The translations under genes and the position numbers were made by a program. This document shows, piece after piece, positions 17,000 through 50,949 of a DNA stretch of 64,000 bases (positions are counted from its first letter, which is position 1; every line of letters starts with the position of its first letter). The notes beneath the pieces are model-generated. The model saw only the letters and a list, made by a program, of their open reading frames with translations, made no database searches and was not told the origin of the DNA. Origin of the DNA: Gadus chalcogrammus (lineage: Eukaryota > Chordata > Actinopteri > Gadiformes > Gadidae); contig NC_079413.1 of NCBI RefSeq assembly GCF_026213295.1, forward strand, positions 18,184,030 to 18,248,029, in the 5' to 3' direction.

Positions 17000-17017
17000 A
17001 TGAGCTTTGTGAGTTAA

Positions 17018-17025
17018 CTCGTACT
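17018..17025. other. 8-bp target duplication CTCGTACT (left copy)
   Basis: CTCGTACT stands directly before the hAT end CAGTGCCGCTGCTA and again directly after the other end at 46230-46237. An 8-bp duplication is diagnostic of hAT transposition. Confidence 0.95.
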
Positions 17026-17039
17026 CAGTGCCGCTGCTA

Positions 17040-17622
17040 GCTATTTTGGGGCCCTAAGCATAACTCCTTTATGGGCCCCCCCCACCCCCCGGAAAATAAG
17101 AATTGGTTTCTGCCAGTTTAACATTTTATTAAAACGCAAAAGTTAAATCTACTTTGTAAACACAGTTCACAGAACAGCCAAAACATACATAGAGTACACA
17201 CAAGTATTGGAATGTCCAAAATCTTTTAAATTAAATAGTTATCCATAAATACGAACTTAAAACCAGAAGTATACAAGTAAGAAAAATTCTTCTATGAAGC
17301 AAAGATTTACAAGCAGAAACTATTTACACAAATATTTACACACTTTACTTTGTAAACACACTATATAGCAGCCAGAACACACACAATAAGTACAAACAAG
17401 AACAGTCAATCTTCTAAAAAAAAACTAAGATTTAGAGGATTGAAAGTCAAAACTTTACTTACTTTGTAAACACAGTAGGCTATGTAGAACAGCTAAAACA
17501 CACATTCAAGTAAAGTGCAAAATCTTCTTTGACCAAATGTTATCAAAATAAACCAAAGACATCATTTTTGAGAGAGCCATAATACTGTATGGATCAAACA
17601 TTTCCACCCGTTTTGGGAGGCT
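17040..17622 (-). other. hAT 3' region with subterminal repeats
   Basis: No gene is seen. The motif CTTTGTAAACACA recurs near 17153, 17347 and 17463 with similar surroundings, giving a degenerate tandem array between the transposase stop and the terminal inverted repeat. Subterminal repeats in hAT elements are transposase binding sites; that role here is inferred. Confidence 0.6.
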
Positions 17623-19982
17623 CTATAGAGGCACACGTCTGCATTTCTTGGCTGCAAAATCACAGATTAGGTCATCATATGACAGCTTCTGAGCCACTTC
17701 ACCATTGATGCCGATGACAGCAAGACCACTTAGACGTTCCTGCCCCATTGTAGAACGTAAGTATGTTTTAATGAGCTTCAGTTTTGAAAAACTTCGCTCA
17801 GCAGACGCAACTGTAACAGGGAGAGTTAATGCGATTCGAAGAGCAACCAAGAGATTTGGAAACACCTCTTGAAGGCTTTTCTCATGGAGAAATGTGAGCA
17901 ACTCCAAGGCAGTTGTCTGTGGTGGCAGTTGTGGAAGGTTGATAATTTCCTGAAACATCACAAGTCCATCAATATCAGAACTTCCTTTCTCAGTCAGTGT
18001 CTTCTGCATTTCACTGCAGTTTCTTTGTAAGTCCTCCTTTGACATTCCGTCAACTCTGCTGAAATCAAGCAGCACTCCAAATTTGTCTCTGACCTGGGAC
18101 ATGGTCTCAAAACGCTCCTGCAGTGACATCAAAGCTGAGTCCACAACACTATTAAAAAATGTTACCTCAAGCCTTTTGAGGGCATCACTGAAGGCCTCGT
18201 CAGCAGCCTCATATGCAAACTGCCTTTTTGTGTTCCTGAGCCTTTTCTCCTTAAGCTCTGGCTCTATGTTCATGGCCTCGCAAAGGTCCTTGGCAGTGGA
18301 CACTGCCTCAGCAAACCCAGAGTGCCTGTATCTGGAGAGGGAGGTTTTGGCATTGTCAATGAGCCTGACAGCAATGTCAAGCTGCATTGAACTACTCTGC
18401 AGAAGTTTGTTCACTTGGTTAGTGGACGTAAGAATTTCACACCAGACAACAGAACAGATCAGAAATCTAAAAGAGGCCACCTCTTCTGCTAGGGCTTGAG
18501 CCTCTATTTTTGCGACTGGGTCATTGACTGTTTCCCTAGCCTCGATGAGCGCATTTCTAATTTCTTTAATTTGGCTTCTGGCAGCTGTGACACTCTTAAG
18601 CCTGCTCTCCCACCTCACATCACTCCATGATTTGACAGTCAGGTTGACGTGTTTTGTCAAGATGCTCCATCGCTGTGTAGCTCCTGAGAAGAAACAAAAT
18701 AGCTTCTGCAAATATCCAAAAAAGCCAGTGGCATCCCTGGACGACTTGGCAGCATCAGCTATGACCAGATTCATGGAATGAGCTGCGCAAGGAACAAACA
18801 ACGCCCTCGAATTAAATTGTAGCAGTCGGGCTTGAACTCCTTGCTTCTTCCCCTTCATGTTTGCTCCATTGTCATAGGACTGACCACGGCAATCATCAAA
18901 TGGAATGTTGAGTTCCTTCAACTTGTTTAGAAGGACAGTAGACAGGTTCAGGCCAGTTGTTTCAACAACCTCCATATACCCAAGGAAATACTCCTTGATA
19001 TTTGGCTTTGCCACCAAATCCACAATGCGCACGGTGAGAGACATTTGTTCCTTGTGGCTAACATCAGGTGTACAGTCAAGAATAATTTAAAAATATTTTG
19101 CTTCCTGAATCTGTGTCTGGATGGTTTGTAATACTTTGGAAGAGATGATCTGGATAAATTCATTTTGTGTCTGTTGTCCAAGATAATGTGTTCGGGAGCT
19201 TTCATCAGTTATCCTGGTCAGGTGGTTCTCCATCACAGGATCAAAGCTGGCTAAAAGCTCCACTTCCTTCAAGAAGTTTTCATTGTCTGGCTCATACAGA
19301 CACTGTGAAGAGCCTCTGAATGACAAATTCCTTGAGGCAAGAGATAGGGTTATTGCAAGTAGGCGTTTGAGAACATCTCGCCACTTTCTTTTTTCTGCCT
19401 CCAGCAATGTCAGTTCCTGGTGGTCTATTGTTAATTTTCTTTGTAAACGCATGTCCAGTTCTTTCCATTTAAACATGCACTGGGCATGGTCTGAGCTGCA
19501 TTCATGACTCTTTAGTCTACTGTTAATGTTGGACCAGTCACTGTAGCCCTCATCTGCAGTCAGCTTAATGGGTTTCAAGCTGAAAAGCTTACACGCAAAA
19601 CAGAACACGGCATTTGCTTGTTGCGAGTAAACAAGCCAACTTCTTTTGACTTTCTCTCCATTTGTGAGTGTTTTGAATTGAAGGCTACTATGAAATGCCC
19701 TGCCATCTAGTCCCCTTGGAAATTAAAATCTGATGGGATTTTAAATGGACCTCTTCGTACCATTTCAACGCGATCCGCATCTAAAACATGTGGCGGCCAA
19801 AGAGCAGGATCAGTTTGAGGGGGCACACAGGTCTCTACATTGTCACAGACTGATGGACTCTCAATGACACTTGTGCTTTCAGAGGTGGTGGTTCTCTGCG
19901 GATCTGTTCCTAAACTGCTGGTTGAGGGTTGTTGATCATCCTGGCTCAACCCGGTATCACGCGATTGCGTGCTCATGCGCAC
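17623..19982 (-). pseudogene. hAT transposase, ZMYM1-like, two lesions
   Basis: Three segments form one protein of about 780 aa: an N-terminal acidic/Ser-rich part (19982-19707), a TTF-type zinc-finger region (19713-19087) with an AVFCFACKLFS motif, and the catalytic/dimerisation part (19086-17623). RNase H-like fold landmarks are GQSYDNGANMKG and FVPCAAHSMNLV; the C-terminal hAT dimerisation domain is recognised by PVTVASAERSFSKLKLIK. A single in-frame TAA at 19087-19089 separates the last two segments, and a frameshift lies near 19710. In fish such genes are often annotated as zinc finger MYM-type 1-like. It would cut and paste the element. Confidence 0.85.
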
Positions 19983-20243
19983 GAACGTTAATCTATTGAA
20001 GCGTGTTCCAGAGTACGATAGTCCGACTTTTTGCGAGCTACACAGAACGAAATGTAAACCAATGCTTTCTGAATGGGAGTGTTGTCAGACAATGAACGTG
20101 CTCCACAAAACGGTACGAGAGAGAGAGAAAGAGAGAGAGGGAGGGACAGAGGGAGAGAGAGAGAGCGAGAGAGAGGCTTCAGAAAGGGTGTGCGCAGATA
20201 GTACAGTGCACCCTAGTTATGTTTTTGCCAAAACTACAAATGC

Positions 20244-20277
<34 letters not shown>

Positions 20278-22980
20278 GCCTAATTAAATATATTGCCTAT
20301 ATATATGTATAGGCTATATATATAATTAGGCTATAATTATATTATTTAGCGTGTAATGAGACAATCTATAGCCAAATTGTCGAAGATGCCCGAGAATCTC
20401 CGGGGATATCAGCATGGGAAATCGGCGAATCAGACCCATGAACCTATAAAGAAAGACGTCATCTCAAGCGGGAGAGAACGTTTGCGGTGCTGGTTTGTGT
20501 CACGTAAGTACAGTGCCGTGTTCCAATACCCGTACTGTCCGTACTTACTAGCCAAAATTTGAGTATGCAGTACGTTCCAATTCAGATCCGGCGAAAATAA
20601 GTATACTTCAAGGACCCGGATGCCGTACTCAAAACGGGCTAATCGTGAAGTGTGGATCGAAGGACACTCCCCGTACTCAACGGCAGCCATCTTAGCAACG
20701 TAGCGAAAGAGGCGGAGCCAGGCTGAGCCAAAGTCGGCGCATTTCCCACATAGTCTGAGTAATTTTGTAGTTTTTATAGTTTTTATAGCTTTTTATAGCT
20801 GCTAGGCGTAAAGAGTTCACCGTTCAAAGCGGGATGTTTATTGCGGGGGAGGAGCCACGGCGGCAAACGTGATCGTAATTTCCGGTTAGTGCACCACGGA
20901 GTACTCGATTTGGAACAGCACTCACATCTGAAAAATTAACGTAGTAGACAGTGCGGATAGTATAGGCTACTTCCTTTAAGTATACTCATGGAAGTATGGT
21001 TATGGTCTCACGAAAATACGTGACACTGTCACGTTATTTAATCTATTGAAACGTGATCAGGGACACGTAGGCCTATTTTCTAAATGTTGTATTTCAATTG
21101 GAAGTAGGCTATTTGTAGTGTCACTAAGCATGACTTCCAAACTAAGGTTCTGTCCGGGAGCGTTCTCCCTAATGTCCCTTATGGAGCTCCGTACAGATCA
21201 TTCATTGTTGAAAATTGTCTGTGATAACTAACAAATGACAGCTTTTGGCCACCCAATTGTATGTCTCGATGTTTATTTTATCTAGCCATCTACTCTCTTG
21301 TTTTTGGCTATGTGAATGAACGTCCGCGTCAATGCCTCGATCGCAAGTCCAGTGTCGCGAGCGGACGTTGCCATGACATCTAGAAATCATACCGTATTTA
21401 ATGGGTTGTAGTGAGTGTAACATAATTCACCTACAGTATTTTGTTATGTGTTTTGTTCTTTCAATTGTGTTGGGCATGTCGTTTACTATCTTGGTGGTTC
21501 AGGGATCGCTGTCCCTTTTAAGAATTACGAGCGTCTCATGACGTCAGAGCCCATACGGGATTTGTTTACCTTCAGCACGTTTTGATTTCCTGTTTTTCTC
21601 TTACTAAATAAACGAGTCACACAACTGTGTGCTCAACGTGCGAAATTGTATCTCTCACTTATGGCAATTTCCACAGGGTTATCATTAATATTGATGTGTA
21701 GGGGTTGTTTATACCTCGTGAATAATATTGTTTAGACCCCGGTCTGGGGGGATACTCTGATTCTGATTGGCTGCTGTGCGTGCATTAACTTCTGATATAG
21801 CCCTACAGACACCTGCTAAGTAGTTCCAGTCAGTGATTAGATTCTCTGCCCGAGTCCGACGCGGGCCGGGGCGGGCCGATATTTCCCACCACTATATTCG
21901 GGCCGGGCCTTTGATCGAGCGTTTTTATTTTTATTTTACCATTGGTTTATTGGCCTAATCTGAGGAGAAATCTATGCCATAAACAGAAATATTATAGGCC
22001 TTTATTACACGGGTTTTCTCAATGCCGTGGAACGCTCCGTTCATGGGTAGTAGTCCGGTGACTTGTCTATCCCAGCGTCTTCCGTTGCTAAGCGACGTCA
22101 CCGTCTTTGCGGACAAATTATTTCTCTGCTGATCAACACTACGAATGGCCAAAAGACTTGTATCCCCCCCCCCCTTAAATAAATACTATGGCAGAATTAT
22201 TATTATTATTATTATTACTATCATTCAACTTGAACATGTGTTTTTACAGTAGAGTGGTGGAGGTATGACGTATGTTGGCCAACCCGGAAGTGAGCGTCGC
22301 CCTGGATTCCCTCGACAAAAAGGCAACGGGTTTTGCCATTGGATTTTGGATTATTGCTGAAACATTTGCATCTTTGAAGCACCTCCTCAAAAACTGAAAA
22401 TAAATAAATAGATAAAAATAACCGTGCTCCAAAAAACGAAATGTAAACCAATGCATTCTGAATGGGAGTGTTTCTCTGATTTTTCCATGCTACACAGAAC
22501 GAAATGTAAACCCATGCAAATAAAGACTTCATGGTCATAATAATTTAAATATCATTAATATCTTGAGTGTGTAGGGTGGTATTCAATTTCTTTCAACGGG
22601 GCTGCATCCAGTCACTTACTTAGACCGTTATGGTTGCTATGGTGGTTGCTATCGACCGCCCCCTCTAATCCTTACATGGCTCTAAAAACCACGCGGCAAA
22701 GGAGCTGCCGTCCATTGTGTTGTTTTCGTCGTAAACTAGGGTCCGATGGTTAGAGAAAAGGCAGATATTCCAAGGTATCCTTAAAAGGCAGCTTGGATGT
22801 TTTTATTTTCTGCAGTTTAGACTTCTACTATAACCTATTTTGGAAAGCAAAACACCAAGCTCATTGATTTAACGAGGCAGGGTTATTTGAAACAATTGAT
22901 TAAGTAAATATTTGTGAGATGTCATTACTTCTCCTGAGTTTGCTTCCTATTTATGTCGAGTATACACCCCTACTGTCCAC
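19954..22980. repeat. 20-kb inverted duplication, outer left arm (L1)
   Basis: This block returns inverted at about 37160-40254. Its outer edge falls inside the first codons of the hAT transposase: the start codon and the next dozen codons are present in both arms, then the sequences part. It includes a GA microsatellite (20112-20177), an AT microsatellite (20249-20277) and a 0.4-kb inner element near 20512-20925 with inverted ends resembling GTGCTGTTCCAA. No protein gene is convincing in it. Confidence 0.88.
20112..20277. repeat. GA-rich and AT microsatellites
   Basis: A GAGA-rich tract spans 20112-20177 and a TATATA tract 20249-20277. The mirror copies are CT-rich at 40019-40082 and TA-rich near 39920-39945, with different lengths. 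Confidence 0.85.
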
Positions 22981-23125
22981 ACAACCCAGTCACACTGGAT
23001 ACGTAGCATTTCAACGTAAAAAATAGCGTGTTATACCTACAGTATCCACGCGTGCCGCTGTGGAGGCGGGTTTCGGGGTTTGGGTTTCACGGCTTTCGCG
23101 GCAAATTGTGGACACGATTGTTTAG

Positions 23126-23242
23126 GGGGGGGGGGGGGGGTAGGCTGTTGTTGACCGGGGGGGGGGGGGGGGGGGGGGGGAAGACACGTTTGTTGAGGGG
23201 GGGGGGAGACACGTTTGTAGGGGGGGGGGGGGGGGGGGCACG
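23126..23242 (+). repeat. G-run array (potential G-quadruplex)
   Basis: Five runs of about 10-20 G alternate with short units such as GACACGTTTGTTGA. The mirror copy at 34632-34760 has the same units with C runs of different lengths. Such runs can form G-quadruplexes and are unstable in replication and sequencing. Confidence 0.85.
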
Positions 23243-24171
23243 CTCGACAACGAGAGTTGGTTTTTATTGAACGCTCGACAACGAGAGTTGGTTTTTATTG
23301 AACGAGACTTCAACACGGAACAGCTGCACGAAACGATGGTCACGTCACTCTCGGTGACGGTGTCGACAAACTTGAACACACGAACAATGTTAATAGAACA
23401 ACACACAACCACATAACATCCCGAACCCATCAACCCCACTTAATCCTAACAACAAAACAAGTTCACAAAAGCCCCTTTTGTCAACTGACAACCCCAATTC
23501 CCAGAATCCCCCGCGGCTCCGGAACACGGCGTAGCCTATATTAATCTTTATTATCTGAATGGGAAATGCAATATTTTAGGAGAGATACACCATTAAACGC
23601 GTTTCTAATGACATTTCTAGCGAGAAATGTACATTTTCCTTACATAATCTTCAGTCAGTGAATGTGTATGATCTTTATTAATCTTTATTATCTGAATGGG
23701 AAATGCAATATTTTAGGACCGATTCACCATTAAACGTGTTTCTAATAACATTTCTAGAGAGAAATATACTTTTTACTTGCATAATCTTCAGTCAGTATAA
23801 CACGCTATTTTATGTTGAAATGCGACGTAATCCAGTGTTCACAAAACATACACTGTCAACGTATGCTTAGTTTTATAGTTTTATAGTCTGATCTTTAGTT
23901 TTATAGTTATTAGGATTTGATCGGCTTGCTCGCATGTTTCAACGACGTCAGGTTGTTAGGAATAGGGACGCTGCTTTCGCTAAACTAGCAGCTCACGTGC
24001 TTCCTGCGTTTGTGTTATTAAACTGTTACTTTATGTACCTTTTAATGATATCATCTTGTTAGAAACACGTATATCTGAGAGCCAACCCAGTCGCCAAAAG
24101 CATACGTTGACAGTGTACGTTTCGTGAACACTGGATTACGTCGCATTTCAACATAAAATAGCGTGTTATAC

Positions 24172-24260
24172 ACACACACGCACGCACACACACACAAGCA
24201 CACACACGCACACGCACGCACAGACACACACAGACACAGACACACACACACGCACACGGT
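24172..24260. repeat. CA-rich microsatellite
   Basis: Alternating CA with interspersed CG dinucleotides. The inverted counterpart is GT-rich at 33695-33785. Confidence 0.9.
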
Positions 24261-24489
24261 GCATTTCGCTGCTAAAACAACAACTACAAAATATTCCCTC
24301 GAATATTATTACTAAAGAACCGTTTTCCAAAGAACGAAATGTAAACCAATGCATTCTGAATGGGAGTGTTTCTCCGATTTTTCCATTCTACACAGAACGA
24401 AATGTAAACCCATGCAAATAAAGACTTCATGGTCATAATAATTTAAATATCATTAATCTCCTGAGTGTGTTGGGTGGTATTCTATTTTT

Positions 24490-25757
24490 TTCAACGGGGC
24501 TGGTGCCGTCTCCTTTTGACCTTTTGACCCCAGACTTCTGGGGGAATAGCTGAATCAATTCATTTGTCAATCAGAAGCATGTAAATATCTTCCCGGTGGG
24601 GTAGGAGGACGAACAAGGTGTCCTTCAACATCTACGCTTCCAGGCGATTGCAACGGTGCCACACATGAGCATATTCGAACATGTTTAATGGTAGTAATTC
24701 GCTGTCGAAATTGGAGGCCTTAATCAATAATGAGCAGCTATTGATTTGCTTCCCGATAATTTTTTTTGACAAATGACATGTTATTTAGCATCTACACGTT
24801 GAGCTGAGTCCAATGACACCAAGCATGACACTCTAGCTAATGGTAACATGTATTTTACATGGTACACCTAGGTCTAGGACATGATCTCGGTGTAGCAAGA
24901 GGGCGAGCTTGATCTCATTGGACTCAGCTTAACGTGTAGATGCTAATTAACATGTAATTTGTCAAAAATCTCCATCGGGAAGCAAATCTATAGCTGGTCA
25001 TTATTGATAAAGGCCTCCAAAATCGACAGCTAATTACTACCCCGAAACATATACATGTGTGGCACTGTTGCAATCGTCTCGAAACGTAGATGTCAAAGGA
25101 CACCTTGTTTGCCCTGTTGCGCGACCGGGAAGATATTTTCATACTTCTAATGGATTGATTCATATTTTAAGGTTCTCGGAGTGAGACTTTAAGCGGCTGC
25201 AGCAGAAGTGTTGAGACGAAAGATGATATCAAGACATTAATAGAATATTCCCATTCACATTATGATTCTTCGTCATAACATCCGACCAAACATCCTTTAC
25301 ATTCACCGAGCGAAGATTATGAAAGTCCAGGCCCCCCCTTCCTGCACTCGGGGTCCGACCGGGCCAAGTTTTGGTGCGGGGGTCCCAGTTAGGCCCTAGA
25401 ATATGGTATTCAAATTTCAGGGCGGTAGGACCTTCCTATCTCAAAAACTGTTTTTCCACCACATTCTGAACCATTAGGTCTCGCAGGCAACACTTCTGAA
25501 GGGGCTTTGTCCAAATGACAGTCCATTTGGGAAAACTTTTTTTCTCTATGGGCTAGAACTACAAATCTTGGATATGTCGTTCTCGGGGCCCCGGGAAATG
25601 TGTGTAAACATTTTAGCATCCCTAGCTATCTCTAAAAGGCCGGAAAAGGGGCGTGACCTCCAACAGTACAGTCACTGTAAATAAGACAGAGGTTAGTTTC
25701 TAGGCCCCATTTTTTGCGGGATGGAGGTGTACATTTGTGGCTTAATGTGTGTAGACA
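24490..25757. repeat. foldback repeat, left copy, first part (L3)
   Basis: The block matches the complement of about 35410-36720 and contains its own palindrome (about 24500-24880 against 24900-25160, sharing TAGCATCTACACGTTGAGCT-like arms). It is cut at 25757 by the CACTA-type element and continues at 32959-33470. Confidence 0.8.
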
Positions 25758-26679
25758 CACTGTAAACCCGAATAAGTTCAGAATACTCAAAACTTTTGTG
25801 GAAACCGATTACCTCAAAGTTTTTGAGTAAGTAAATTAGAATATTTAAGTAAGTCTGTACTTAAATATTTTTACATCATTTACTCAAATATTACTTATTA
25901 TTAAAAAAAAATTGTGAGTGTACTGTACTTAAAACATTTGTTTTAATTTGTATAAACGTTTTAATTTTTTTGCAATGACTTGTTATGATGATATTGTACT
26001 TAATTATTCAACATCTTTAAACTCAAAAAATATACTGGTTAGTAACCAAAAAGATAATTTTACAAAGCTCATAAACTACTATTTTTTTTAAGTTCAGAAT
26101 ACTCAAATAAACTTAGAATATTTCAATGTTTTTATTCAGATTTTATTCTTTTTCTCCAAACCACTTTGGTCACAGCAACAGAGCTGTAAGTATACAAACA
26201 CCACATACACACATCTGTATGTTAACCATGGACATCCAACTTGTAAAACCAGGCCAGTAAAACAAGGCCAACAAATGCACAATCTGAAAATGTAAACACA
26301 CCCCGTTTGGTTGAAGGATACCTTGCATATCATGAACCGTCAACATATACATCCACACATACATTATATAAAAACAGATTTATATGGCTATGTATAAATC
26401 ACTGCAAATGTTTAAATGTTTGTATAAAAGCATTGGGAACTTGTGCTCAGTGTAAAGGTATGGCCTTTCAAAACAGCATCTTCAAGTTTTTTTTACATCT
26501 ATGGCCATTCAAGGAAATAATTTGAAATGAATAAAAAATAAATTAAATAAATAACCAAAAAGTAAATATCAGGATATCAGATATCAAGTCATTGAACATG
26601 AATAAAAAATAAATCAAATAAATAACCAAAAAGGAACATAAATCAATGTAACAACAAACATGCATCATACAGGTAACGT

Positions 26680-29107
26680 CTACACTGTAAGCAGGTCATT
26701 TTTCAAAGAGAGCAGAGTAGGTTTCAGGGGTGCACCGTCATCCAACCCCATTAGAACCTTTTGTATGAAAGTGAAGGTGCCAACAAGCTTCTTTGGGTAG
26801 TCGAGATGTAACACATACACCAGCCCAAACAGTAACACATATGCATCGGCAAACGTGGCAATGTCCCTCATGATGAATTCATCTTCCACCACAATGGCTG
26901 TGGATACGGGACTGAAGTGAACGGGAGATGCACTTCTTTCTCTGATCATCGTGACAATACCAATGGGTGTGTCCTCGATGTCTGGCTCCTCTGATTCCTC
27001 AGTCTGGAAAATGCAAAAGTACACTGGTAACTATTTCTGAATACTTATACAGCTGCCCATTCAAAAATTAAGTATACAACTAAGTATTACACAATAACAA
27101 CAAAGATAAGTTAACCCCTTCCACTACTCCTCTCCCCCCCCCCCCCAATTAAGGTTAAGTGGCTCAACTAGAAATTTCCCCTCAGATATTTTGAGAAATC
27201 CCTTGGACCTCTGCTGGGGGTGCCTTCTTCAGTCAGTCAGTCAGTCAGTCAGTCAGTCAGTCAGTCAGTCAGTCAGTGAGTGAGTGAGTGAGTGAGTGAG
27301 TGAGTGGAGTGAGTATGTGATGGTGAGAAAAAGAAGCCTTAGGGCCCTACTTACAACACCAAGGCACTTCAAAAGAGCTCCAATGGTAAAAGGTGATTAG
27401 TGATGAGATCTTTTATATAAATATATTAAGACTTACGTTCCAAGTCTTGAAAAACTGTGTGTCCTCTTCCCGCAGGTATACTGAGAGAGCACGAAGGGCC
27501 ACAGTGCGTTTCATGTTGATATCCTGCACATCCTGGGTGGATAAACAAAGACACATGAGAAAAAAAACAGGGGCCCTTTGCTGCCGACAAAGTATGACTT
27601 ACTTTACTAAATATGTACATGTTACAGGATAACTAATTGATTTAAAGTTAAAAGTGAAGGACTGCCCCTTGTATAGTAGTAGTATATAGTAATGAAGTGG
27701 TAGTAAATGCTGACAATCCTGGCAGCCAGCTGTCCCATGTGGATAAAATTTAGACAAAGTCCATTTTAGCTTTTTTTCAACTCACCTCAGTTTCATAATA
27801 CTGTAGGATGTCTCGCAGTGCTCCTGCCACCCTTCCAGTACGAGCTGCCTTCTGTCTGTAAAGTTCTATGAGCTGTTGAATGTGCCGATCTAGTTCACAA
27901 TAAAACTGGTTCCGTAAATTTATATTGGTGATCCTGTGGAACTCAGCACAGACCTACAAAATAACATGGACACACAAAGTATGTGAAAGACAGTAAAATA
28001 CCAAAGGGAAACACATCATAGTCACATTTGATGGGTGCACTATCTTTTTAAAATGAATAGCCAGTACAATAAAAATAGTTGAAGATGAGCAGAAAACACT
28101 TTGAGTCTGTGTATTATTGTTTTTGTTATTATTATTTTTACCTGTGATTGGACCTGAAGGGCAGGCCATCTCTCCAGAAAGTCCTTCACCAATGGGTCTC
28201 CCTGAACAATTTCCTGACGACGAAGTGCAAAGGTTGTCTGCATGAGTTTCTCTATTGATTGTAGGTTTCTGTCGGCTCTATCAACTTCAGCTTTCATCTC
28301 TATTCTCATTTCCTCCAAACTGTCCTCGTTTTGTCCTCTTGGGAAGTTTGGGAGAAAGTTTACTTCAGCCCTTCTGGCTTTTTTAATGTTCGAGTGGGGA
28401 TGTGCTTTCTCTGGATTATTCCTGCTTCTTTTCCCTGTATTTACGGACACCTCCTTGCATCCAGCTCTTGCCAGCCTAGTACGGTAATTTCCCATTTTAA
28501 ATTTCAGGCTAATTTTCCATCCGTACCACCCACTCGCAGACCCCAGCTCTTTCAGACATGGGTGAGCGTTAATCAGGGCGTCAGCTGCCATGCCTACATC
28601 CCTGTCGCTTGGGTACGGTTTAAAAGAGTACATTAAGGAGGCCATGTTCTCTATAATGTTGTGTTTTTGTGCTCTGCTTAATTTTAGAGTCTTTCCAGAG
28701 CTCTCAAAAACACTGTTCCCCTCTTGCAAGACATGTTCAACTTTATACGAAAAAGTTGGGACAGGGAAAACATCAGGCCATGTTTTTTGCCGTTGGCTTA
28801 CAGGCACGTGAGGCAGGATATCTGTGTCTGAACTACCACATGAACTTAGGTCACTTTCTGATCTAACAACTCTAAGCGTGCCCTTCTCTGGCAGGTCTTC
28901 TACATCAACCAAACAGCAGAGCTCTCCTCCGAAGTCCGGATCCTCATACTGTAACGTGAATTCAAAGTCCAGCCTTGGCTTAGCTTTGTCTTTCAAGATG
29001 CCGATGAGCTCATCAACTGATGTTGGCCTCTCATTCAAAGTCACTTTCACAGCCACATCAGTAGCTATGTAGACACGAAGAAGGTACTTTGGGGACATGG
29101 CCATCAG
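26680..29107 (-). CDS. SAMD3-like accessory protein of the CACTA element, four exons
   Basis: Exons by GT/AG sites on the minus strand are 29107-28142, 27953-27786, 27532-27437 and 27003-26680. All junctions keep the frame and give about 516 aa from ATG at 29104. An acceptor CAG just before 29107 implies an upstream non-coding exon. The N-terminus resembles a PB1 domain (QYEDPDFGGELCCLVDVEDL). A conserved basic DNA-binding-like block follows (GWYGWKISLKFKMGNYRTRL, about residues 195-214), then a helical tail. Similar proteins are annotated in fish as SAM-domain-containing 3-like, although no SAM domain is seen here. By analogy with TnpA of plant CACTA elements it may help excision; that is inference. 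Confidence 0.75.
27227..27312. repeat. compound CAGT/GAGT microsatellite in intron
   Basis: About 13 CAGT units change directly to about 8 GAGT units. It lies in the last intron of the SAMD3-like gene. Confidence 0.9.
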
Positions 29108-29275
29108 CTGAAAATCAAGAGAGAGAACAGTTATCAAATTTTGTAGGGAATGAAACAACAAAACTTAGTCTAAAAAAATCATCTTTACACATTCATTTAC
29201 ACAGTCAAAAACTTCAAATGAAAGAATTTAGACATTTCCTTTCATCTCAAAATCAACTCACTGTTTTGGTATGAA

Positions 29276-32644: not shown

Positions 32645-32765
32645 ACAAGTTTTCTTAACTTCAGCAGCCGATGCACTCCTCTCGCTTCACGACCGCCATG
32701 TTGGTTTGATTTTTGCCTCGTTCGGTCGGTGCCGCCAACGTAATGGCGCAATGACGTCATTACGT
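32645..32765 (-). promoter_or_regulatory. candidate promoter and first exon of the CACTA genes
   Basis: On the minus strand a palindrome centred on TGACGTCA (a CRE/ATF-type site) stands near 32750. It is followed by a short GC-rich leader and a splice donor CTT/GTAAGT near 32645. This would supply the non-coding first exon needed by the downstream genes. No TATA box is evident. Confidence 0.45.
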
Positions 32766-32958
32766 TGCACGCCTCCGTGCATTCAAAGGTTTTGAGTAAG
32801 GTTGTGATGATCGCTCAGACAATTTAAGTAGCACGAAATTATAACTGCATTCCTCGTTCGGAACACTTAGTAACTTAAAGTTGGGTTGACCTGATAGCGG
32901 ATTTTGTTTGTTGTTTCACAATACTTTTGAGTTAGTAGTACTGTTCGGGTTTACAGTG

Positions 32959-33470
32959 CACAGCTGGCCTGTGGCCACGTCTTTGAAGTCTGGGGTCAAA
33001 AGGTCAAAAGGAGCCGGCACCACGCCGCTTATGAGATAACAAAAAGTGAATCTGTATTTCTCTCATAACATTTTGTCATTATTGAAGAGAGGCCTGATTC
33101 TCAGATATGCATGTTGGACTGTTAGGGTATAGGTCTGGGAAGAACTTCAGGCCAAAATCTTGCAAGCGAGCCGCTGGGTGCAGGTGCAACGAGATGGAGC
33201 ACTTGCTGAGTCATTTCCTGTAGGGCTGGAGCCACAGGTTGAAGCGTATATGCGTCCTTTGAAACCCCCTTTGATATATAAGAGACCCCAAGGTACAGTT
33301 TACTTAAATGTTCTCGCCTCAGTCACCTATTGCATCACTTCCTTTAGGGCTTCGGCCTCCTAATTGATCATTGTAGTATAATTGAATGCCCTCTTTCATA
33401 TTATATGATACTTCCACCACTGGGACGTGGCAACAACTCTCCAAATCCATATGGGGGGGGGGATGCTTTT
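32959..33470. repeat. foldback repeat, left copy, second part
   Basis: Continues 24490-25757 after the CACTA-type insertion; complementary to about 34970-35410 and also similar in direct orientation to 36700-37140. It includes GTCTGGGGTCAAAAGGTC and ends at a G run beside the block GACAGTAGGGGTGTACAC. Confidence 0.8.
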
Positions 33471-33544
33471 GGACAGTAGGGGTGTACACTAGACATAAAT
33501 AGGAAGCAAACTCAGGAGAAGGAATGACCTCTCACAAATATTTA

Positions 33545-34930
33545 TTGAATACATTTCGTTCTGTGTAGCATGGAAAAATCTGAGAAACACTCCCATTCAG
33601 AATGCATTGGTTTACATTTCGTTCTTTGGAAAACGGTTCTTTAGTAATAATATTTGAGGGAATTTTGTTGTTGTTTTAGCAGCGAAATGCACCGTGTGCG
33701 TGTGTGTGTCTGTGTCTGTGTGTGTCTGTGCGTGCGTGTGCGTGTGTGTGTGTGTGTGCTTGTGTGTGTGTGCGTGCGTGTGTGTATAACACGCTATTTT
33801 ATGTTGAAATGCGACGTAATCCAGTGTTCACGAAACGTACACTGTCAACGTATGCTTTTGGCGACTGGGTTGGCTCTCAGATATACGTGTTTCTAACAAG
33901 ATGATATCATTAAAAGTTACATAAAGTAACAGTTTAATAACACAAACGCAGGAAGCACGTGAGCTGCTAGTTTAGCGAAAGCAGCGTCCCTATTCCTAAC
34001 AACCTGACATCGTTGAAACATGCAAGCGAGCCGATCAAATCCTAATAACTATAAAACTAAAGATCAGACACAATCACTGACTGAAGATTATGCAAGTAAA
34101 AAGTATATTTCTCTCTAGAAATGTTATTAGAAACACGTTTAACGGTGAATCGGTCCTAAAATATTGCATTTCCCATTCAGATAAAAAAGATTAAAAAAGA
34201 TCATACACATTCACTGACTGAAGATTATGTAAGGAAAATGTAAATTTCTCGCTAGAAATGTCATTAGAAACGCGTTTAATCGTGTATCTGTCCTAAAATA
34301 TTGCATTTCCCATTCAGATAATAAAGATTAATATAAGCTACGCTGTGCTCCGGAGCCGCGGGGGATTCTGGGAATTGGGGTTGTCAGTTGACAAATGGGG
34401 CTTTTGTTAACTTGTTTTGTTGTTAGGATTAAGTGGGGTTAATGGGTTCGGGATGTTATGTGGTTGTGTGTTGTTCTATTAACATTGTTCGTGTGTTCAT
34501 TGTTGTCGACACCGTCACCGAGAGTGACGTGACCATCGTTTCGGGAAGCTGTTCCGTGTTGAAGTCTCGTTCAATAAAAACCAACTCTCGTTGTCGAGCG
34601 TTCAATAAAAAACAACTCTCGTTGTCGAGCGTGCCCCCCCCCCCCCCCCTACAAACGTGTCTCCCCCCCCCCCCCTCAACAAACGTGTCGTCTTCCCCCC
34701 CCTCAACAAACGTGTCTCCCCCCCCCCCCCCCGGTCAACAACAGTCTACCTCCCCCCCCCCCCTAAACAATCGTGTCCACAATTTGCCGTGAAACCCAAA
34801 CCCCGAAACCCGCCTCCACAGCGGCACGCGTGGATACTGTAGGTATAACACGCTATTTTTTACGTTGAAATGCTACGTATCCAGTGTTCATGGAAACGTA
34901 CACCGTCAACGTTTTTTCTTGGCGACTGGG
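33545..34930. repeat. 20-kb inverted duplication, middle right arm (R2)
   Basis: Inverted counterpart of 22985-24410, including GT microsatellite 33695-33785, the two roughly 120-bp units near 34070-34330 and C-run tandem motifs 34632-34760. Run lengths and some substitutions differ between arms. Confidence 0.85.
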
Positions 34931-34944
34931 TTGGTCCACAAGCA

Positions 34945-37145
34945 TCCCCCCCCCCCCCCCCCCCCCCTCCCCATATGGATTTGGAGAATTGTTGCCACGT
35001 CCCAGTGGTGGAGGTATCATATATATGAAAGAGGGCATTCAATTATACTATAATGATCAATTAGGAGGCCGAAGCCCTAAAGGAAGTGATGCAATAGGTG
35101 ACTGAGGGTCAACATTAGCAAATGATGCATACGCTTCAACTTGTGGCTCCAGCCCTACAGGAAATGACTCAGCAAGTGCTCCATCTCGTTGCACCTGCAC
35201 CCAGCGGCTCGCTTGCAAGATTTTGGCCTGAAGTTCTTCCCAGACCTAAACCCTAGCCATCCAACATGCATATCTGAGAATCAGGCCTCTCTTTAATAAG
35301 GACAAAAAGTTATGAGAGAAATACACATGAACTTTTTGTTATCTCATAAGCGGCGTGGTGCCGGCTCCTTTTGACCTTTTGACCCCAGACTTCAAAAATG
35401 TGGCCACAGGCCAGCTGTGTCTACACACCTTAAGCCACAAATGTACACCTCCATCCCACAAAAAATGGGGACTAGAAACTAACCTCTGTCTTATCTACAT
35501 TTACTGTACTGTTGGAGGTCACGCCCCTTTTCCGGCCTTTTCGAGATAGCCAGGGATACTTAAATGTTTACACACATTTCCCGGGGCCCCGAGAACGACA
35601 TATCCGAGATTTGGAGTTCTAGCCCTTAGAGAAAAAAAGTTTTCCCAAATGGACTGTCATTTGGACAAAGCCCCTCAGAAGTGTTGCCTGCAAGACCTAA
35701 TGGTTCAGAATGTGGTGGAAAAACAGTTTTTGAGATAGGAAGGTCCTACCACCCTGAAATTTGAATACCTTATTCTAGGGCCTAACTGGGACCCCCGCAC
35801 CGAAACTTGGCCCGGTCGGACCCCGAGGGCAGGAAGGGGAGGCCCTTCCTGCCTGAAACTTGGCCCAGTCGGACCCCGAGTGCAGGAAGGTGGGGCCTGG
35901 ACTTTCATAATCTTCGCTTGGTGAATGTGAAGGATGTTTGGTCGGATGCTATGACGAAGAATCGTAATGTGAATGGGAATATTCTATAAATGTCTTGATA
36001 TCATCTTTCGTCTCAACACTTCTGCTGCAGCCGCTTAAAGTCTCACTCCGAGAACCTTAAAATTTGAATCAATCCATTAGAAGTATGAAAATATCTTCCC
36101 GGTGGCGTAACGGAGCAAACAAGGTGTGCTTTGACATCTACGTTTCGAGGCGATTGCAACAGTGCCACACATGATCATATTTGAATATGTTTCGGGGTAG
36201 TAATTAGCTGTCGATTTTGGAGGCCTTTATCAATAATGACCAGCTATAGATTTGCTTCCCGATGGAGATTTCTGACAAATTACATGTTATTTAGCATCTA
36301 CACGTTAAGCTGAGTCCAATGAGATCAAGCTCGCCCTCTTGCTACACCGAGATCATGTCCTAGACCTATGTGTACCATGTAAAATACATGTTACCACCCG
36401 CATGCTTGGTGTCATTGGACTCAGCTCAACGTGTAGATGCTAAATAACATGTCATTTGTCACAAATTTCTATCGGGAAGCAAATCAATAGCTGCTCATTA
36501 TTGATTAAGGCCTCCAATTTCGACAGCTAATTACTACCATTAAACATGTTCGAATATGCTCATGTGTGGCACCGTTGCAATCGCCTGGAAGCGTAGATGT
36601 TGAAGGACACCTTGTTCTCCCTCTTACGCCACCGGGAAGATATTTAAATACTTCTGATTGACTGATGAATTGATTCAGCTATTCCCCCAGAAGTCTGGGG
36701 TCAAAAGGTCAAAAGGAGCCGGCACCACGCCGCTTATGAGATAACAAAAGTTCATGTGTATTTCTCTCATAACTTTTTGTCATTATTAAAGAGAGGCCTG
36801 ATTCTCAGATATGCATGTTGGATGGCTAGGGTGTAGGTCTGGGAAGAACTTCAGGCCGAAATCTTGTAAGCGAGCCGCTGGGTGCAGGTGCAACGAGATG
36901 GAGCACTTGCTGAGTCATTTCCTGTAGGGCTGGAGCCACAGGTTGAAGCGTATGAGTCCTTTGAGACCCCCTTTGATAAAAGGGGTTCTCAAATGTTGAC
37001 CCTCAGTCACCTATTGCATCATTTCCTTTAGGGCTTCGGCCTCCTAATTGATCATTATAGTATAATTGAATGCCCTCTTTCATATATATGATACCTCCAC
37101 CACTGGGACGTGGCAACAGTTCTCCAAATCCATATGGGGAGGGGG
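34945..37145. repeat. 2.2-kb foldback repeat, right copy (R3)
   Basis: Arms about 34970-35395 and 36690-37140 are inverted copies (CCATATGGATTTGGAG; AGGAGGCCGAAGCCCTAAAG). The centre holds a second palindrome near 36060-36680 and, at about 35790-35890, a partial tandem duplication of a unit around CTTGGCCCGGTCGGACCCCGA that is single in the left copy. C and G runs with GCATCC/GGATGC mark the outer ends. It preserves the empty target of the CACTA-type element. No gene seen. Confidence 0.8.
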
Positions 37146-37159
37146 GAGGGATGCTTGTG

Positions 37160-40016
37160 GACAGTAGGGGTGTATACTCGACATAAATAGGAAGCAAACT
37201 CAGGAGAAGTAATGACATCTCACAAATATTTATTTAATAAATTGTTTCAAATGACCCTGCCTCGTTAAATCAATGAGCTTGGTGTTTTGCTTTCCAAAAT
37301 AGGTTATAGTAGAAGTCTAAACAGCAGAAAATAAAAACACCCAAGCTGCCTTTTAAGGATACCTTGGAATATCTGCCTATTTTCTAACCATCGGACCCTA
37401 GTTTACGACAAAAACAACACAATGGACGGCAGCTCCTTTGCCGCATGGTTTTTAGAGCCATGTAAGGATTAGAGGGGGCAACCACCATAGCAACCATAAC
37501 GGTCAAGTGACTGGATGCAGCCCCGTTGAAAGAAATTGAATACCGTCCTACACACTCAAGATATTAATGATATTTAAATTATTATGACCATGAAGTTTAT
37601 TTGCATGGGTTTACATTTCGTTCTGTGTAGCATGGAAAAATCGGAGAAACACTCCCATTCAGAATGCATTGGTTTACATTTCGTTCTTTGGAGCACGGTT
37701 ATTTTTATCTATTTATTTATTTTCAGTTTTTGAGGAGGTGCTTCAAAGATGCAAATGTTTCAGCAATAATCCAAAATCCAATGGCAAAACCCGTTGGCTT
37801 TTTGTCGAGGGAATCCAGGGCGACGCTCACTTCCGGGTTGGCCAACATACGTCATCCCTCCACCACTCTACTGTAAAAACACATGTTCAAGTTGAATGAG
37901 AATAATAATAATAATAATAATAATTCTGCCATAGTATTTATTTAAGGGGGGGGGGATACAAGTATTTTGGCCATTCGTAGTGTTGATCAGCAGAGAAATA
38001 ATTTGTCCGCAAAGACGGTGACGTCGCTTAACAACGGAAGACGCTGGGATAGACAAGTCACCGGACTACTACCCATGAACAGAGCGTTCCACGGCATTGA
38101 GAAGACCCGTGTAATAAAGGCCTATAATATTTCTGTTTATGGCATAGATTTCTCCTCAGATTAGGCCAATAAACCAATGGTAAAATAAAAATAAAAACGC
38201 TGGTGGTGGGAAATATCGGCCCGACCCGGCCCGCGTCGGGCTCGGGCAGAGAATCTAAACACTGACTGGAACTACTTAGCAGGTGTCTGTAGGGCTATAT
38301 CAGGAGTTAATGCATGCACTGCAGCCAATCAGAATCAGAGTATTCCCCCAGACCGTGGTCTGAACAATATTATTCACGAGTTATAAACAACCCCTACACA
38401 TCAATATTAATGATAACCCTATGGAAATTGCCATAAAAGAGATACAATTTCGCACGTTGAGCACACAGTTGTGTGACTCGTTTATTTAGTAAGAGAGAAA
38501 CAGGAAATCCAAACGTGCAGAAGGTAAACAAATCCCGCATGGGCTCTGACGTCATGAGACGCTCGTAATCCTTAAAAGGGACAGCGATCCCTGAACCACC
38601 AAGATAGTAAACGACATGCCTAACACAATTGAAAGAACAACACATAACAAAATACTGTAGGTGAATTATGTTACACTCACTACAACCCATTAAATACGGT
38701 ATTATTTCTAGATGTCATGGCAACGTCCGCTCGCGACACTGGACTTGCGATCGAGGCATCGACGCGGACGTTCATTCACATTGCCAAAAACAAGAGAATA
38801 GATGGCTAGATAAAATAAACATCAAGACATGCAATTCTAAAAAGAACAGATGAAGCAGCTACCCTTTTTTCCTTCGCGGTTTGCCTACAGACTAGCGCAC
38901 CTGCATTTAATATATCCGTGTATTGTCACAATTTCTCAGTATCAAAGGTGAAAGTAGAAACGGGTGGCCAAAAGCTGTCATTTGTTAGTTATCACAGACA
39001 ATTTTCAACAATGAATGATCTGTACGGAGCTCCATAAGGGACATTAGGGAGAACGCTCCCGGACAGAACCTTAGTTTGGAAGTCATGCTTAGTGACACGA
39101 CAAATAGCCTACTTCCAATTGAAATACAACATTTAGAAAATAGGCCTACGTGTCCCTGATCACGTTTCAATAGATTAAATAACGTGACAGTGTCACATAT
39201 TTTCGTGAGACCATACCCTTACTTCCATGAGTATACTTAAAGGAAGTATACTATCCGCACTGTCTACTACGTTAATTTTTCAGATGTGAGTGCTGTTCCA
39301 AATCGAGTACTCCGTGGTGCACTAACCGGAAATTACGATCACGTTTGCCGCCGTGGCTCCTCCCCCGCAATAAACATCCCGCTTTGAACGGTGAACTCTT
39401 TACGCCTAGCAGCTATAAAAGCTATAAAACTATAAACTACAAAATGACTCTATTATTGCAGACTATGTGGGAAATGCGCCGACTTTGGCTCAGCCTGGCT
39501 CCGCCTCTTTCGCTACGTTGCTAAGATGGCTGCCGTTGAGTACGTGGAGTGTCCTTCGATCCACACTTCACGATTAGCCCGTTTTGAGTACGGCATCCGG
39601 GTCCTTGAAGTATACTTCTTTTCGCCGGATCTGGAACGTACTGCGTACTCAAATTTTGGCTAGTAAGTACGGACAGTACGGGTATTGGAACATGGCACTG
39701 TACTTACGTGACACAAACCAGCACAGCAAACGTTCTCTCCCGCTTGAGATGACGTCTTTCTTTATAGGTTCATGGGTCTGATTTCCCATGCTGATATCCC
39801 CGGAGATTCTCGGGCATCTTCGACAATTTGGCTATAGATGGTCTCATTACACGCTAAATAATATAATTATAGCCTAATTATATATATAGCCTATACATAT
39901 ATATAGGCAATATATATAATTAGGCAATATATATATATATATACATATAGCATTTGTGGTTTTGGCATAAACATAACTAGGGTGCACTGTACTATCTGCG
40001 CACACCCTTTCTGAAG

Positions 40017-40055
<39 letters not shown>

Positions 40056-40254
40056 CTCCCTCTCTCTCTTTCTCTCTCTCTCGTAGTGTTTTGTGGAGCA
40101 CGTTCATTGTCCGACAACACTCCCATTCAGAAAGCATTGGTTTACATTTCGTTCTGTGTAGCACGCAAAAAGTCGGACTATCGTACTCTGGAACACGCTT
40201 CAATAGATTAACGTTCGTGCGCATGAGCACGCAATCGCGTGATACCGGGTTGCC
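37160..40254. repeat. 20-kb inverted duplication, outer right arm (R1)
   Basis: Inverted counterpart of 19954-22980. The far end repeats the first codons of the hAT transposase (ATG near 40222 on the plus strand), then diverges. It lacks the rest of the gene, so this is a promoter plus start codon without a body. Confidence 0.88.
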
Positions 40255-40841: not shown

Positions 40842-41178
40842 TGTGGCAACCCCGATCGTCGGCGGCTGAGATTCCCGAAGGAGACGGACCAAATAGGGTG
40901 TGGGTCAACGGTTTTTATTGCGTATAACCACTTAAAAAAGGTCAAACAAAAGACAACGAAAGTTCTTCCACTTATGGGGTAAAAAGGGTGAGGGGGGGTC
41001 GGTGAGGTCAGCATGGCTCCCGCTCCCGGCTTCTCCCGCGCCCGTCGCTCCCTCTCAGCACGAGTCACATGGCTGAGAGAGCCCCGAATGAGTGGAGAAG
41101 CAGGCTATTTAAGCTGCTTCTCCACCGGTTCCTCAGGTGCTCCTCATCTTCTTAATTGGCAACGGCCGGGTTGCCACA
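40842..41178 (-). repeat. solo LTR (337 bp)
   Basis: It starts TGTGGCAACC and ends GGTTGCCACA with the 4-bp duplication ACAT on both sides (40838-40841 and 41179-41182). The minus strand has an AATAAA near 40915, so the LTR is read right to left. No internal domain adjoins it, indicating recombination between former LTRs. Probably Ty3/gypsy type by its ends. Confidence 0.75.
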
Positions 41179-41294
41179 ACATATGTACCTACATGTCTTT
41201 CACTATCTGCTAGAGCTATACTGAACATAGTCTAGTTAGGCCTACTTGTAAAATGCATAATGTTTAACAGTAAAATCTAAATTTAGCTTGCACC

Positions 41295-42148
41295 TAGGGT
41301 TGCCAACTTCCTAAACCCCAAATGAGGGACACTTTTCTTCCAGGTGCGCACACGCGCCAACAGCTGACCAACAATAATGGAAATTGCAAGGTTTCATTAG
41401 CCATACCATGAACCTATTAAATTCAGTGTTATTTTGGCAAAACAACTACTGTACTTGCTTGGATGTATTGTTCATAATAATAGTCAAGACAATCATTACA
41501 AGTTTCTCTCAAATTTCATGTTGTTTTCGTTAGCATTAGCATTAGACCTGTTTAGCATAGACTCCTGGTTGCTATGGTTATCTAGGTGCTATGCTAGCTA
41601 GCTAGCTAGCTAAGGGAACTTTTAATACCCTTTAACGATCTAAATGTAAGATTTCCGTTTGCATGAAATTATAGCTAGTTATCTAGCTAATGTTATAGTC
41701 TCCTCGATTTAATTTCTACAATTATAATGGGTGCTTGAGAAACGTCGTATGAACGAGTTCATGTTCATGAGTTAAATGTATTATTATTATTATTATTATA
41801 TTCACACATATAAACACCAGTTCATCATGTCTAAAGAATTCTGATGTGAAATATGAAAACAACAATGTGCAAGCTTCCAATTTAATCGTGATTTAAGATA
41901 CTTAGATCGCTAAAAGTTTCACCTTTTCGTGCTGGCGTTACAAATGCTTGTTGTGGAGAGGAGTGCAGCTGAGAGCCGCTTGTCTCCAGGGCACAGACAC
42001 TAAACTGTTACATTTTTCTCTTTTCACGGATACAAATAAAAAAGGCTGTGATTGTTATACGGGACTGCAGCTGTCCCTGACGCTGACGGGACAATTCAAA
42101 ATCATAATTCGGGATGTCCCGGACAATTCGGGACAGTTGGCAACCCTT
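41295..42148. mobile_element. 854-bp hAT MITE
   Basis: The ends TAGGGTTGCCAACT and AGTTGGCAACCCTT are inverted, flanked by the perfect 8-bp duplication CTTGCACC (41287-41294 and 42149-42156). No transposase. A GCTAGCTA repeat lies near 41590-41612. Confidence 0.88.
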
Positions 42149-42313
42149 CTTGCACCTAAGTTATAACATATTTGAGTGTGCTAACATTAGCAATAACGTT
42201 AGCTAGTTCGAGGTGTATGCATAGGCTAACCCAGTGGTTCCCAAACTTTTTTTCAGGGGACCCCCTTTTGGACTTAACCCCCCCCCCCCCCCCCCCCCCC
42301 AACTTGTTGCTAT

Positions 42314-45391: not shown

Positions 45392-45630
45392 CGTGAAATC
45401 AACGAGATAGAATTATGGTCATCGCTGAGGAAAACTGAATCACTGAATTAATCACTGCGGGCCGATTATCAGACTGACGTTCGATGGCGGGACAAACCGA
45501 CAAATATAGAATCAAAGGGTGGGGTTACAGGGGGTTCTTTTCAAAGGTGGATTTCTCTCTGCAAAGTGGCTGTGCATTAAAAGCCTATTCTGACGCCAGT
45601 ATTTTAATATAATGTTTCATATAATTATTC

Positions 45631-45631
<1 letters not shown>

Positions 45632-45670
<39 letters not shown>
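45632..45670. repeat. AT microsatellite
   Basis: About 20 TA units followed by a T run, near the right end of the BED-type hAT. Confidence 0.9.
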
Positions 45671-45682
<12 letters not shown>

Positions 45683-45745
45683 TATGCAAACTGGCCCATC
45701 TCTCCGCGACCCCCCTGACGGTGCTCCGCGACCCCCAGTTTAACC

Positions 45746-46229
45746 ATTCAATTAGCAGCACATTTCCTGTATTTTACAATGATTAAACATGGACTTAACT
45801 GATAGTGATGCAAAGGATTCATCTCGCTGTTTCCTCTTCTTTCTTTTTTCTGCCCCTGACTCATGCGATCTTTTCGAGGTCATTCCGAAAAGTTGACATA
45901 GCCTCCTGTCAAGTTCGCTGTCAAGTTCGCCTGGCCACTTTAGACAGGGCAACCACGCGAGCTTGGGATGTTGCATGTGTATTTGTGGGGGGGGGGGGGG
46001 ACCATCGTAACTTTTTTTTGAGCAATTAAATATATCTCTTGTTCTGCCTGTTTTGTGATATGCATGGCTAAAAGGTGCCTTATATTTCTATACTGAAATA
46101 ATATCGGCATTATTATTATTATTATAACTATGATGATTTTTTTTGAAAGTTGCCTATTTTTGGGGCCCCCCTCAGGACTTGAGGCCCTACGCGCAGCGCG
46201 TAGTGCGCGTTATGGTAGCGGCGGCACTG
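45746..46229. other. right flank of the 29-kb hAT, no gene
   Basis: Contains a G run near 45986-45999 and an ATT repeat near 46110, then the hAT end with the GC-rich palindrome CTACGCGCAGCGCGTAG (46189-46205) just inside the terminal repeat. Confidence 0.6.
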
Positions 46230-46237
46230 CTCGTACT

Positions 46238-50945: not shown

Positions 50946-50949
50946 TTAA
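50946..50949. other. TTAA target duplication, left copy
   Basis: The matching copy is at 61180-61183. Together they bracket the foldback element. Confidence 0.9.

What the first reader, a model, noticed from the sequence alone, without database searches (positions are those of the whole stretch)
17018..46237. 29.2-kb block bounded by hAT ends with a perfect 8-bp duplication
CTCGTACT flanks both ends of the block, the ends are inverted CAGTGCCGC(C/T)GCTA, and the Gmr1-like gag reads in phase across the junction. It thus behaves as one hAT insertion of exceptional size, holding a CACTA element, two hAT MITEs, a second hAT, a solo LTR and a giant inverted duplication. Either it grew in place or very large hAT cargo can move.
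Basis: partly seen in the sequence, partly recalled or inferred. Interest (0 to 1): 0.75.

Follow-up and report, generated by a model that had tools for sequence, protein, structure and literature searches.

The report
Five-kilobase transposon swollen by nested insertions
What looked like one giant 29-kb jumping gene in a fish genome (probably pollock) is an ordinary 5-kb one that other transposons later jumped into, several layers deep; two of those layers have very long mirror-image arms and belong to families with hundreds of ends in the same genome.

Summary
In detail: an 8-bp duplication (CTCGTACT) and 14-bp inverted ends bound 17026-46229, and the gag frame is open across the joined flanks. 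The "giant hAT" reading does not hold. Two complete relatives elsewhere in the genome are 5,025 and 5,030 bp with their own 8-bp duplications; a third long copy also lacks every insert. Aligned to them, the block is a 5-kb hAT with three separate insertions: element A (19947-40252, duplication CCTGGCT), a solo LTR (40842-41178, ACAT) and a second hAT-like element (about 42232-45740, right end unclear). Inside A sits element B (22982-34933, GTCCACA), and inside B a CACTA-like element (25758-32958). Each of four internal junctions searched occurs only in the window among the hits scored. The "giant inverted duplication" is the long inverted repeats of A and B, which share a core. Growth in place is by far the best reading. 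The most unusual by-product is the A/B family: CAACCC...GGGTTG ends, 7-bp (once 8-bp) duplications, 294 and 360 exact ends, and a common B length near 6.1 kb; the centre of the one such copy read is a near-perfect palindrome without long frames. I found no transposase for it. The genome is probably Gadus chalcogrammus.

The parts
17018..17025 (.). left 8-bp target-site duplication CTCGTACT of the hAT
46230..46237 (.). right 8-bp target-site duplication CTCGTACT
16508..17017 (-). retroelement gag frame, downstream half, interrupted by the hAT
   Evidence: frame open when the flanks are joined
46238..46838 (-). retroelement gag frame, upstream half, with a SCAN-type match
   Evidence: (PF02023, E 4e-17)
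17026..19946 (-). host hAT, first segment, with transposase frames 17623-19086 (Dimer_Tnp_hAT, DUF4371) and 19087-19722
19947..40252 (.). insert A: CAACCC...GGGTTG element, 7-bp duplication CCTGGCT (19940-19946 / 40253-40259); 8.35 kb once B is subtracted
22982..34933 (.). insert B inside A: CAACCCAGTC...GACTGGGTTG, 7-bp duplication GTCCACA on both sides; 4.75 kb once the CACTA is subtracted
25758..32958 (-). CACTA-like element inside B: ends CACTGTAAACCC / GGGTTTACAGTG, 2-bp duplication CA, frames of 892 and 374 aa
40253..40841 (-). host hAT, second segment (its first 7 bp are A's target duplication)
40842..41178 (.). solo LTR (TG...CA), 4-bp duplication ACAT
41183..42231 (-). host hAT, third segment
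42232..45740 (-). second hAT-like element: left end CAGTGGTTCCCAAAC, frames 43624-44703 and 44660-45412; right end not clean
   Evidence: only weak Pfam matches
45741..46229 (-). host hAT, last segment with the right end

Best explanation
An ordinary hAT of about 5.0 kb inserted into a retroelement gag frame and made the 8-bp duplication. Later it was hit by three independent insertions: element A into its transposase gene, an LTR element since reduced to a solo LTR, and a second hAT-like element. Element A then took element B, and B took a CACTA-like element. The hAT's ends stayed intact, so the nest still looks like one 29.2-kb hAT. Shown: relatives at 5.0 kb without the inserts, the uninterrupted sequence at the sites of A and B, separate duplications for A, B, the LTR and the CACTA, and four unmatched junctions. 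Inferred: the order among inserts on the same level, and that every insertion followed the hAT's arrival at this site.
For: Relatives L025 and L028 (5,025 and 5,030 bp, perfect 8-bp duplications) align as 17026-19946, 40253-40839/40841, 41179/41181-42231 (L028 to 42218), 45741-46229; the third long copy, L035, aligns to the same segments (first segment only 17137-19859) and also lacks every insert. One search scored 40 of 70 candidates for the 3' end: besides the window, only these 3 match nearly all of the 258-bp query. Of 20 copies fetched, 14 gave both ends with a duplication (12 exact, 2 with one mismatch): twelve of 343-1,042 bp and two of 5.0 kb. L025 and L028 read CATCCTGGCTTGGTG at the site of A; the window has CCTGGCT on both sides of A. 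B has GTCCACA on both sides, and the unbroken arm of A reads CTGTCCACAAGCATCC. Junction hAT|A: of 40 scored hits, 1 spans it (the window), 2 hold only the hAT side and 37 only A. Junctions B|CACTA, A|B left and A|B right: only the window spans each, of 41, 40 and 41 rows.
Against: Cut-and-paste moves leave no donor, so missing sister copies do not prove that the hAT never moved with cargo. The genome searches score only about 40 candidates each (of 933 to 1,698 in the junction searches). The right junctions of A and of the CACTA, and those of the solo LTR and the second hAT-like element, were not searched. That second element has an unclear right end and, read by eye, 2 mismatches in a putative 8-bp duplication (GGCTAACC / GTTTAACC). 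No orthologous locus of another species could be examined.
Confidence: 0.94

Rival explanations
1. The hAT already carried some of the cargo (at least element A) when it landed here, so a hAT of 13-29 kb moved as one unit.
For: The outer duplication is perfect and the terminal repeats are intact. Cut-and-paste would leave no sister copy.
Against: No other locus spans any of the four junctions searched, among scored hits. The three other long copies found are free of inserts. A interrupts the transposase gene, so a move would need help in trans.
Confidence: 0.05
2. The two CAGTGCCGC ends belong to two different hAT elements acting as a composite.
For: A second hAT-like element lies near the right end (42232-45740).
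Against: Intact 5.0-kb relatives contain both ends, and the sequence next to each end, in one continuous element.
Confidence: 0.01

Closest known systems
hAT superfamily DNA transposons
   Same: 8-bp duplications, CAG...CTG ends, hAT C-terminal dimerisation and DUF4371 domains
   Different: this copy is interrupted at three places; otherwise ordinary
Nested transposon clusters of plants such as wheat and maize (recalled; only search listings seen)
   Same: younger elements inside older ones, each with its own duplication
   Different: here the layers inside the hAT are DNA transposons apart from one solo LTR, and the host is a fish
Galileo (P superfamily, Drosophila; passages of PMC4168063 and PMC3573991 seen)
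   Same: long inverted repeats, 7-bp and sometimes 8-bp duplications, non-autonomous copies made of two repeats, exchange of sequence among copies
   Different: A/B ends are CAACCC, A's arms are longer (about 3 kb against about 0.3-1.2 kb), and no P transposase was found between listed A ends on C1-C5
Kyakuja/Zisupton (KDZ; passages of PMC12730594 seen)
   Same: Kyakuja makes 7-bp duplications with CA...TG termini; Zisupton makes 8-bp ones
   Different: fungal Kyakuja is reported there without TIRs; one KDZ hit lies inside a wide 19.3-kb pair of B ends, so there is no firm link
Dada (passages of PMC3706591 and PMC8869645 seen)
   Same: 6-7-bp duplications, present in fish
   Different: the Dada-U6 and Dada-U1 families in those passages lack TIRs and target small RNA genes; A and B have kilobase inverted repeats, and in the window they sit in a hAT and in A

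Membership tests
hAT | 8-bp target-site duplication | tested here: met
   CTCGTACT in the window; 12 exact and 2 one-mismatch among the 14 of 20 copies with both ends found; one of the 12 lies in a CA repeat and is weak
hAT | hAT transposase domains | tested here: met
   PF05699 E 1.7e-12 and PF14291 E 6.5e-9 in 17623-19086
hAT | short terminal inverted repeats shared by family members | tested here: met
   20 of 20 fetched copies show CAGTGCCGC at the left end; the mate ...GCACTG was found in 14 of the 17 tested
P/Galileo superfamily (for A and B) | 7-8-bp duplication | tested here: met
   A and B in the window 7 bp; C3 copy of A 7 bp; of 10 further A pairs, 5 with exact 7 bp, 1 with 8 bp (by eye), 1 with 6 of 7, 3 with none
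P/Galileo superfamily (for A and B) | P-type transposase in an autonomous relative | tested here: inconclusive
   55 PF21787 matches; the 12 places on C1-C5 (14 of 55 rows) were compared with the listed A ends: nearest 30.1 kb, none between paired ends; the other rows were not compared
KDZ (for A and B) | KDZ transposase in an autonomous relative | tested here: inconclusive
   22 PF18758 matches; by eye, one (C1:578491, 2 stops) lies inside a 19.3-kb pair of B ends that also holds an A end
Dada (for A and B) | Dada transposase / insertion in small RNA genes | not tested
   no model looked for; A and B in the window sit in a hAT and in A
CACTA/EnSpm (25758-32958) | CACT(A/G) ends and 2-3-bp duplication (recalled) | tested here: met
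   CACTG...CAGTG and CA/CA; a 2-bp match is weak by itself
CACTA/EnSpm (25758-32958) | recognisable transposase | tested here: inconclusive
   892-aa frame has 181 homologues at E<=0.001, those with organism names among the 120 listed being fish, but no Pfam transposase match

The most novel reading that the evidence does not exclude
A and B are two subfamilies of an undescribed lineage of long-palindrome DNA transposons. They show no coding capacity. The common B form is about 6.1 kb, with arms that meet at its centre without a spacer. They make 7-8-bp duplications, exchange outer arms around a shared core, spread to hundreds of copies recently, and are moved in trans by a transposase still to be found. 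If that transposase is neither P, KDZ nor Dada, this would be a new superfamily.
Probability: 0.4. Interest if true: 0.55.

Novelty: new member of a known kind. Interest (0 to 1): 0.33.

Why it matters
The block is a clear example of how perfect outer ends and duplication can make nested insertions look like one giant mobile unit; annotation by ends alone would misjudge the mobile length by a factor of about six. The A/B family may matter more. Palindromes of several kilobases whose arms meet at the centre are expected (recalled) to be unstable, yet this genome holds 360 exact B ends, the commonest spacing is near 6.1 kb, and the one such copy read at its centre is a palindrome. How such elements move, replicate and escape repair could be tested directly.

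Tried and rejected
Rejected: the block as a single giant hAT (5.0-kb relatives); the block as a composite of two hATs (same calls); the 20-kb insert as one giant element with about 5.8-kb arms (my own reading until searches showed B inside A); the 28.3-kb and 48.6-kb A pairs as proof of giant mobile units (duplications 7/7 and 6/7, but the A and B copies that I looked into are themselves interrupted, so the size may again be growth in place).

Led nowhere: transposase hunt through P, KDZ and MULE models; sampling three A-end pairs at 20 points of 60 bp (13 of 20 samples have no match to the sequence held, 2 match in part, 5 over their whole length to A/B parts); two reverse-transcriptase frames in the C3 locus are retroelements; the exact A end is not in viral contigs. 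Paper searches (titles and starts of abstracts seen) listed nothing that I recognised as this family; that is no proof that it is unpublished.

Full report
Setting. The window is C2:18184030-18248029 of a 630-Mb assembly. C1 of that assembly is 28,941,121 bases long, the same as the contig given for a Gadus chalcogrammus protein, P0081, so the genome is most likely Alaska pollock. This is inference from one matching length.

The observation. CTCGTACT stands at 17018-17025 and 46230-46237, around inverted ends CAGTGCCGCTGCTA and CAGTGCCGCCGCTA. The element is therefore 17026-46229. With 160 bp of flank from each side joined over one duplication copy, one frame of the gag reads through the junction without a stop.

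What the hAT is. A search with the first 283 bases scored 40 of 74 candidates and gave 41 matches. I fetched 10 kb around 20 of them. Of the 20, 14 gave both ends with a duplication: 12 exact and 2 with one mismatch. Twelve are short (343-1,042 bp) and two, L025 and L028, are 5,025 and 5,030 bp. For L010, L011 and L014 the mate search failed; L015, L018 and L020 had no mate and were not put into. A search with the last 258 bases scored 40 of 70 candidates; apart from the window only three places match nearly all of it: L025, L028 and the place fetched as L035. All three lack every insert found in the window. L035 does not align over the first 110 bases or so, and its first segment ends at 19859. 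The first segment of the window hAT differs from L025 and from L028 by 38 mismatches each over 2,922 columns; L025 and L028 differ by 74 over 5,055. The window copy is thus about as diverged as its relatives are from each other. L028 has an open frame of 811 aa on the transposase strand; that of L025 is broken by one stop and that of L035 is in at least two pieces.

The inserts in the hAT. Compared with L025 and L028, the window has three insertions. (1) 19947-40252, between two copies of CCTGGCT; both relatives read CATCCTGGCTTGGTG at this point. (2) 40842-41178, TG...CA, between two copies of ACAT. The same sequence occurs as a pair of copies, 98% alike and about 0.5 kb apart, in the C3 locus, as expected of an LTR. 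(3) About 42232-45740. Its left end is CAGTGGTTCCCAAAC; the right end is not clean and the putative duplication has two mismatches. Its two frames have only weak Pfam matches, so "second hAT" rests on the left end and on recall of the family.

Element A. Insert 1 begins CAACCCGGTATCACGCG and ends with the inverse. The first 204 bases gave 40 scored places, the window included, of 948 candidates, all at 99-100%. The exact 23-base end occurs 152 times forward and 142 times reverse; the reversed control 0 times. Only the first 100 places are listed. They give 26 inward pairs up to 60 kb apart (the window's own included), 0.43-41 kb, median 7.0 kb. A copy at C3:4377273-4390424 has duplication AGCTGTA. 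Ten further pairs were read at their ends: five have an exact 7-bp duplication (10.68, 9.14, 10.46, 11.64 and 28.3 kb), one has 8 bp (6.63 kb; CCTAATGC, read by eye; the script, set to 7 bp, scored it 2 of 7), one has 6 of 7 (48.6 kb) and three have none (10.64, 43.4 and 4.68 kb).

Element B. The block at 19947-25759 and 35416-40252 looked like one inverted duplication with rearranged order. Junction searches explain it. With 22837-23136 (40 rows), the window alone spans the junction; 36 places start at 22992 or up to 6 bases before it and 3 end at 22981. With 34772-35071 (41 rows), 39 places stop at 34933 or up to 14 bases beyond and 1 starts at 34934. The sequence shows CAACCCAGTC...GACTGGGTTG between two copies of GTCCACA, and the unbroken right arm of A, and C3, read CTGTCCACAAGCATCC at that point. 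So B is a separate insertion, 22982-34933, with the same CAACCC end and 7-bp duplication as A. The start at 22992 rather than 22982 in other copies reflects a deletion of about 43 bp next to B's left end in the window (by eye). Without B, A has the order arm-d-c-d-arm, as in C3, and is 8.35 kb. A's two arms are 97.6% alike over 2,957 columns; those of C3 are 97.4% over 2,196; arms of the different copies are 94.3-95.2%. One place on C10 seemed to hold the same B-A order. Its sequence shows B inserted at another point of an A-type arm, about 200 bp away, so it is an independent event.

B as a family. The exact 24-base end of B occurs 181 times forward and 179 reverse, control 0. The first 100 places give 27 inward pairs, median 5,968 bp; 18 of 27 are 5.7-6.3 kb. 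The central 2,650 bases of the 6,139-bp copy at C2:20425336-20431474 match their own reverse complement over 2,611 columns at 96.4%; the longest frame is 81 aa. That copy is a palindrome at its centre, with the arms meeting there. I did not read its outer parts, nor the centre of any other 6.1-kb copy; that the others are the same is inferred from their length.

The CACTA-like element. 25758-32958 has ends CACTGTAAACCC...GGGTTTACAGTG and CA on both sides. The junction at its left end is spanned by the window alone of 41 rows; 37 rows hold only the B/A side and 3 only the element. Its 892-aa frame has 181 homologues at E<=0.001; among the 120 listed, those with an organism name are fish. It has no Pfam transposase match, so the name rests on its ends and on recall.

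Which reading. Nesting explains the boundaries with separate duplications and needs no unusual step. Movement of a filled hAT would need a transposase in trans and has no positive evidence. It cannot be strictly excluded because cut-and-paste leaves no donor. I could not examine the locus in other species.

The transposase for A and B. Seven-base duplications with long inverted repeats recall Galileo (passages of PMC4168063 and PMC3573991), which also has copies made of repeats only and exchange among copies. Kyakuja makes 7-bp duplications with CA...TG ends (passages of PMC12730594); Dada makes 6-7-bp ones (passages of PMC3706591 and PMC8869645). P-type (55 matches), KDZ (22) and MULE (7) domains were located. 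By script, the 12 P places on C1-C5 were compared with the listed A ends; the nearest is 30.1 kb away and none lies between paired ends. The KDZ and MULE matches, and the B ends, were compared by eye and only for the listed stretches (C1 to part of C6): one KDZ match lies inside a 19.3-kb pair of B ends that also contains an A end. This is open. A likely history, by analogy with Galileo, is that gene conversion or recombination extended the inverted repeats until they met and the coding part was lost. That is inference.

Noticed in passing
C2:24678635-24906880 (genome): Eight B ends in a row, all on the + strand, within 260 kb of the end of the chromosome (24,937,401): possibly a subtelomeric array.
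   Followed up: no
C1:573325-592593 (genome): A 19.3-kb pair of B ends holds a KDZ transposase match with 2 stops (C1:578491-578952) and an A end at 591149.
   Followed up: no
C9:19030816-19060196 (genome): Four P-transposase-like matches in frames of 870-890 aa within 30 kb, same strand.
   Followed up: no
48769-63508: BEL/Pao-type frames (Peptidase_A17, DUF5641, a reverse transcriptase match below the curated cut-off) lie on either side of direct repeats 50989-51478 and 59651-60138 that are 99.6% alike: probably another nest, an LTR element inside a BEL/Pao element.
   Followed up: partly
9030-9954: A 0.93-kb self-inverted repeat, 89% alike, beside 3795-8271 with long retroelement-like frames.
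   Followed up: no
1-531, 3095-3346, 10700-11400: A tandem repeat with a unit of about 170 bp in three places and both orientations.
   Followed up: no
C14:27206254-27212884 and 27237907-27244538 (genome): Two A pairs of 6,631 and 6,632 bp, 31.7 kb apart, their four ends all listed at 100%; perhaps a segmental duplication.
   Followed up: no
L077 (C10:11210430-11210670): B inserted into an A-type arm at another point than in the window, an independent B-in-A event.
   Followed up: yes
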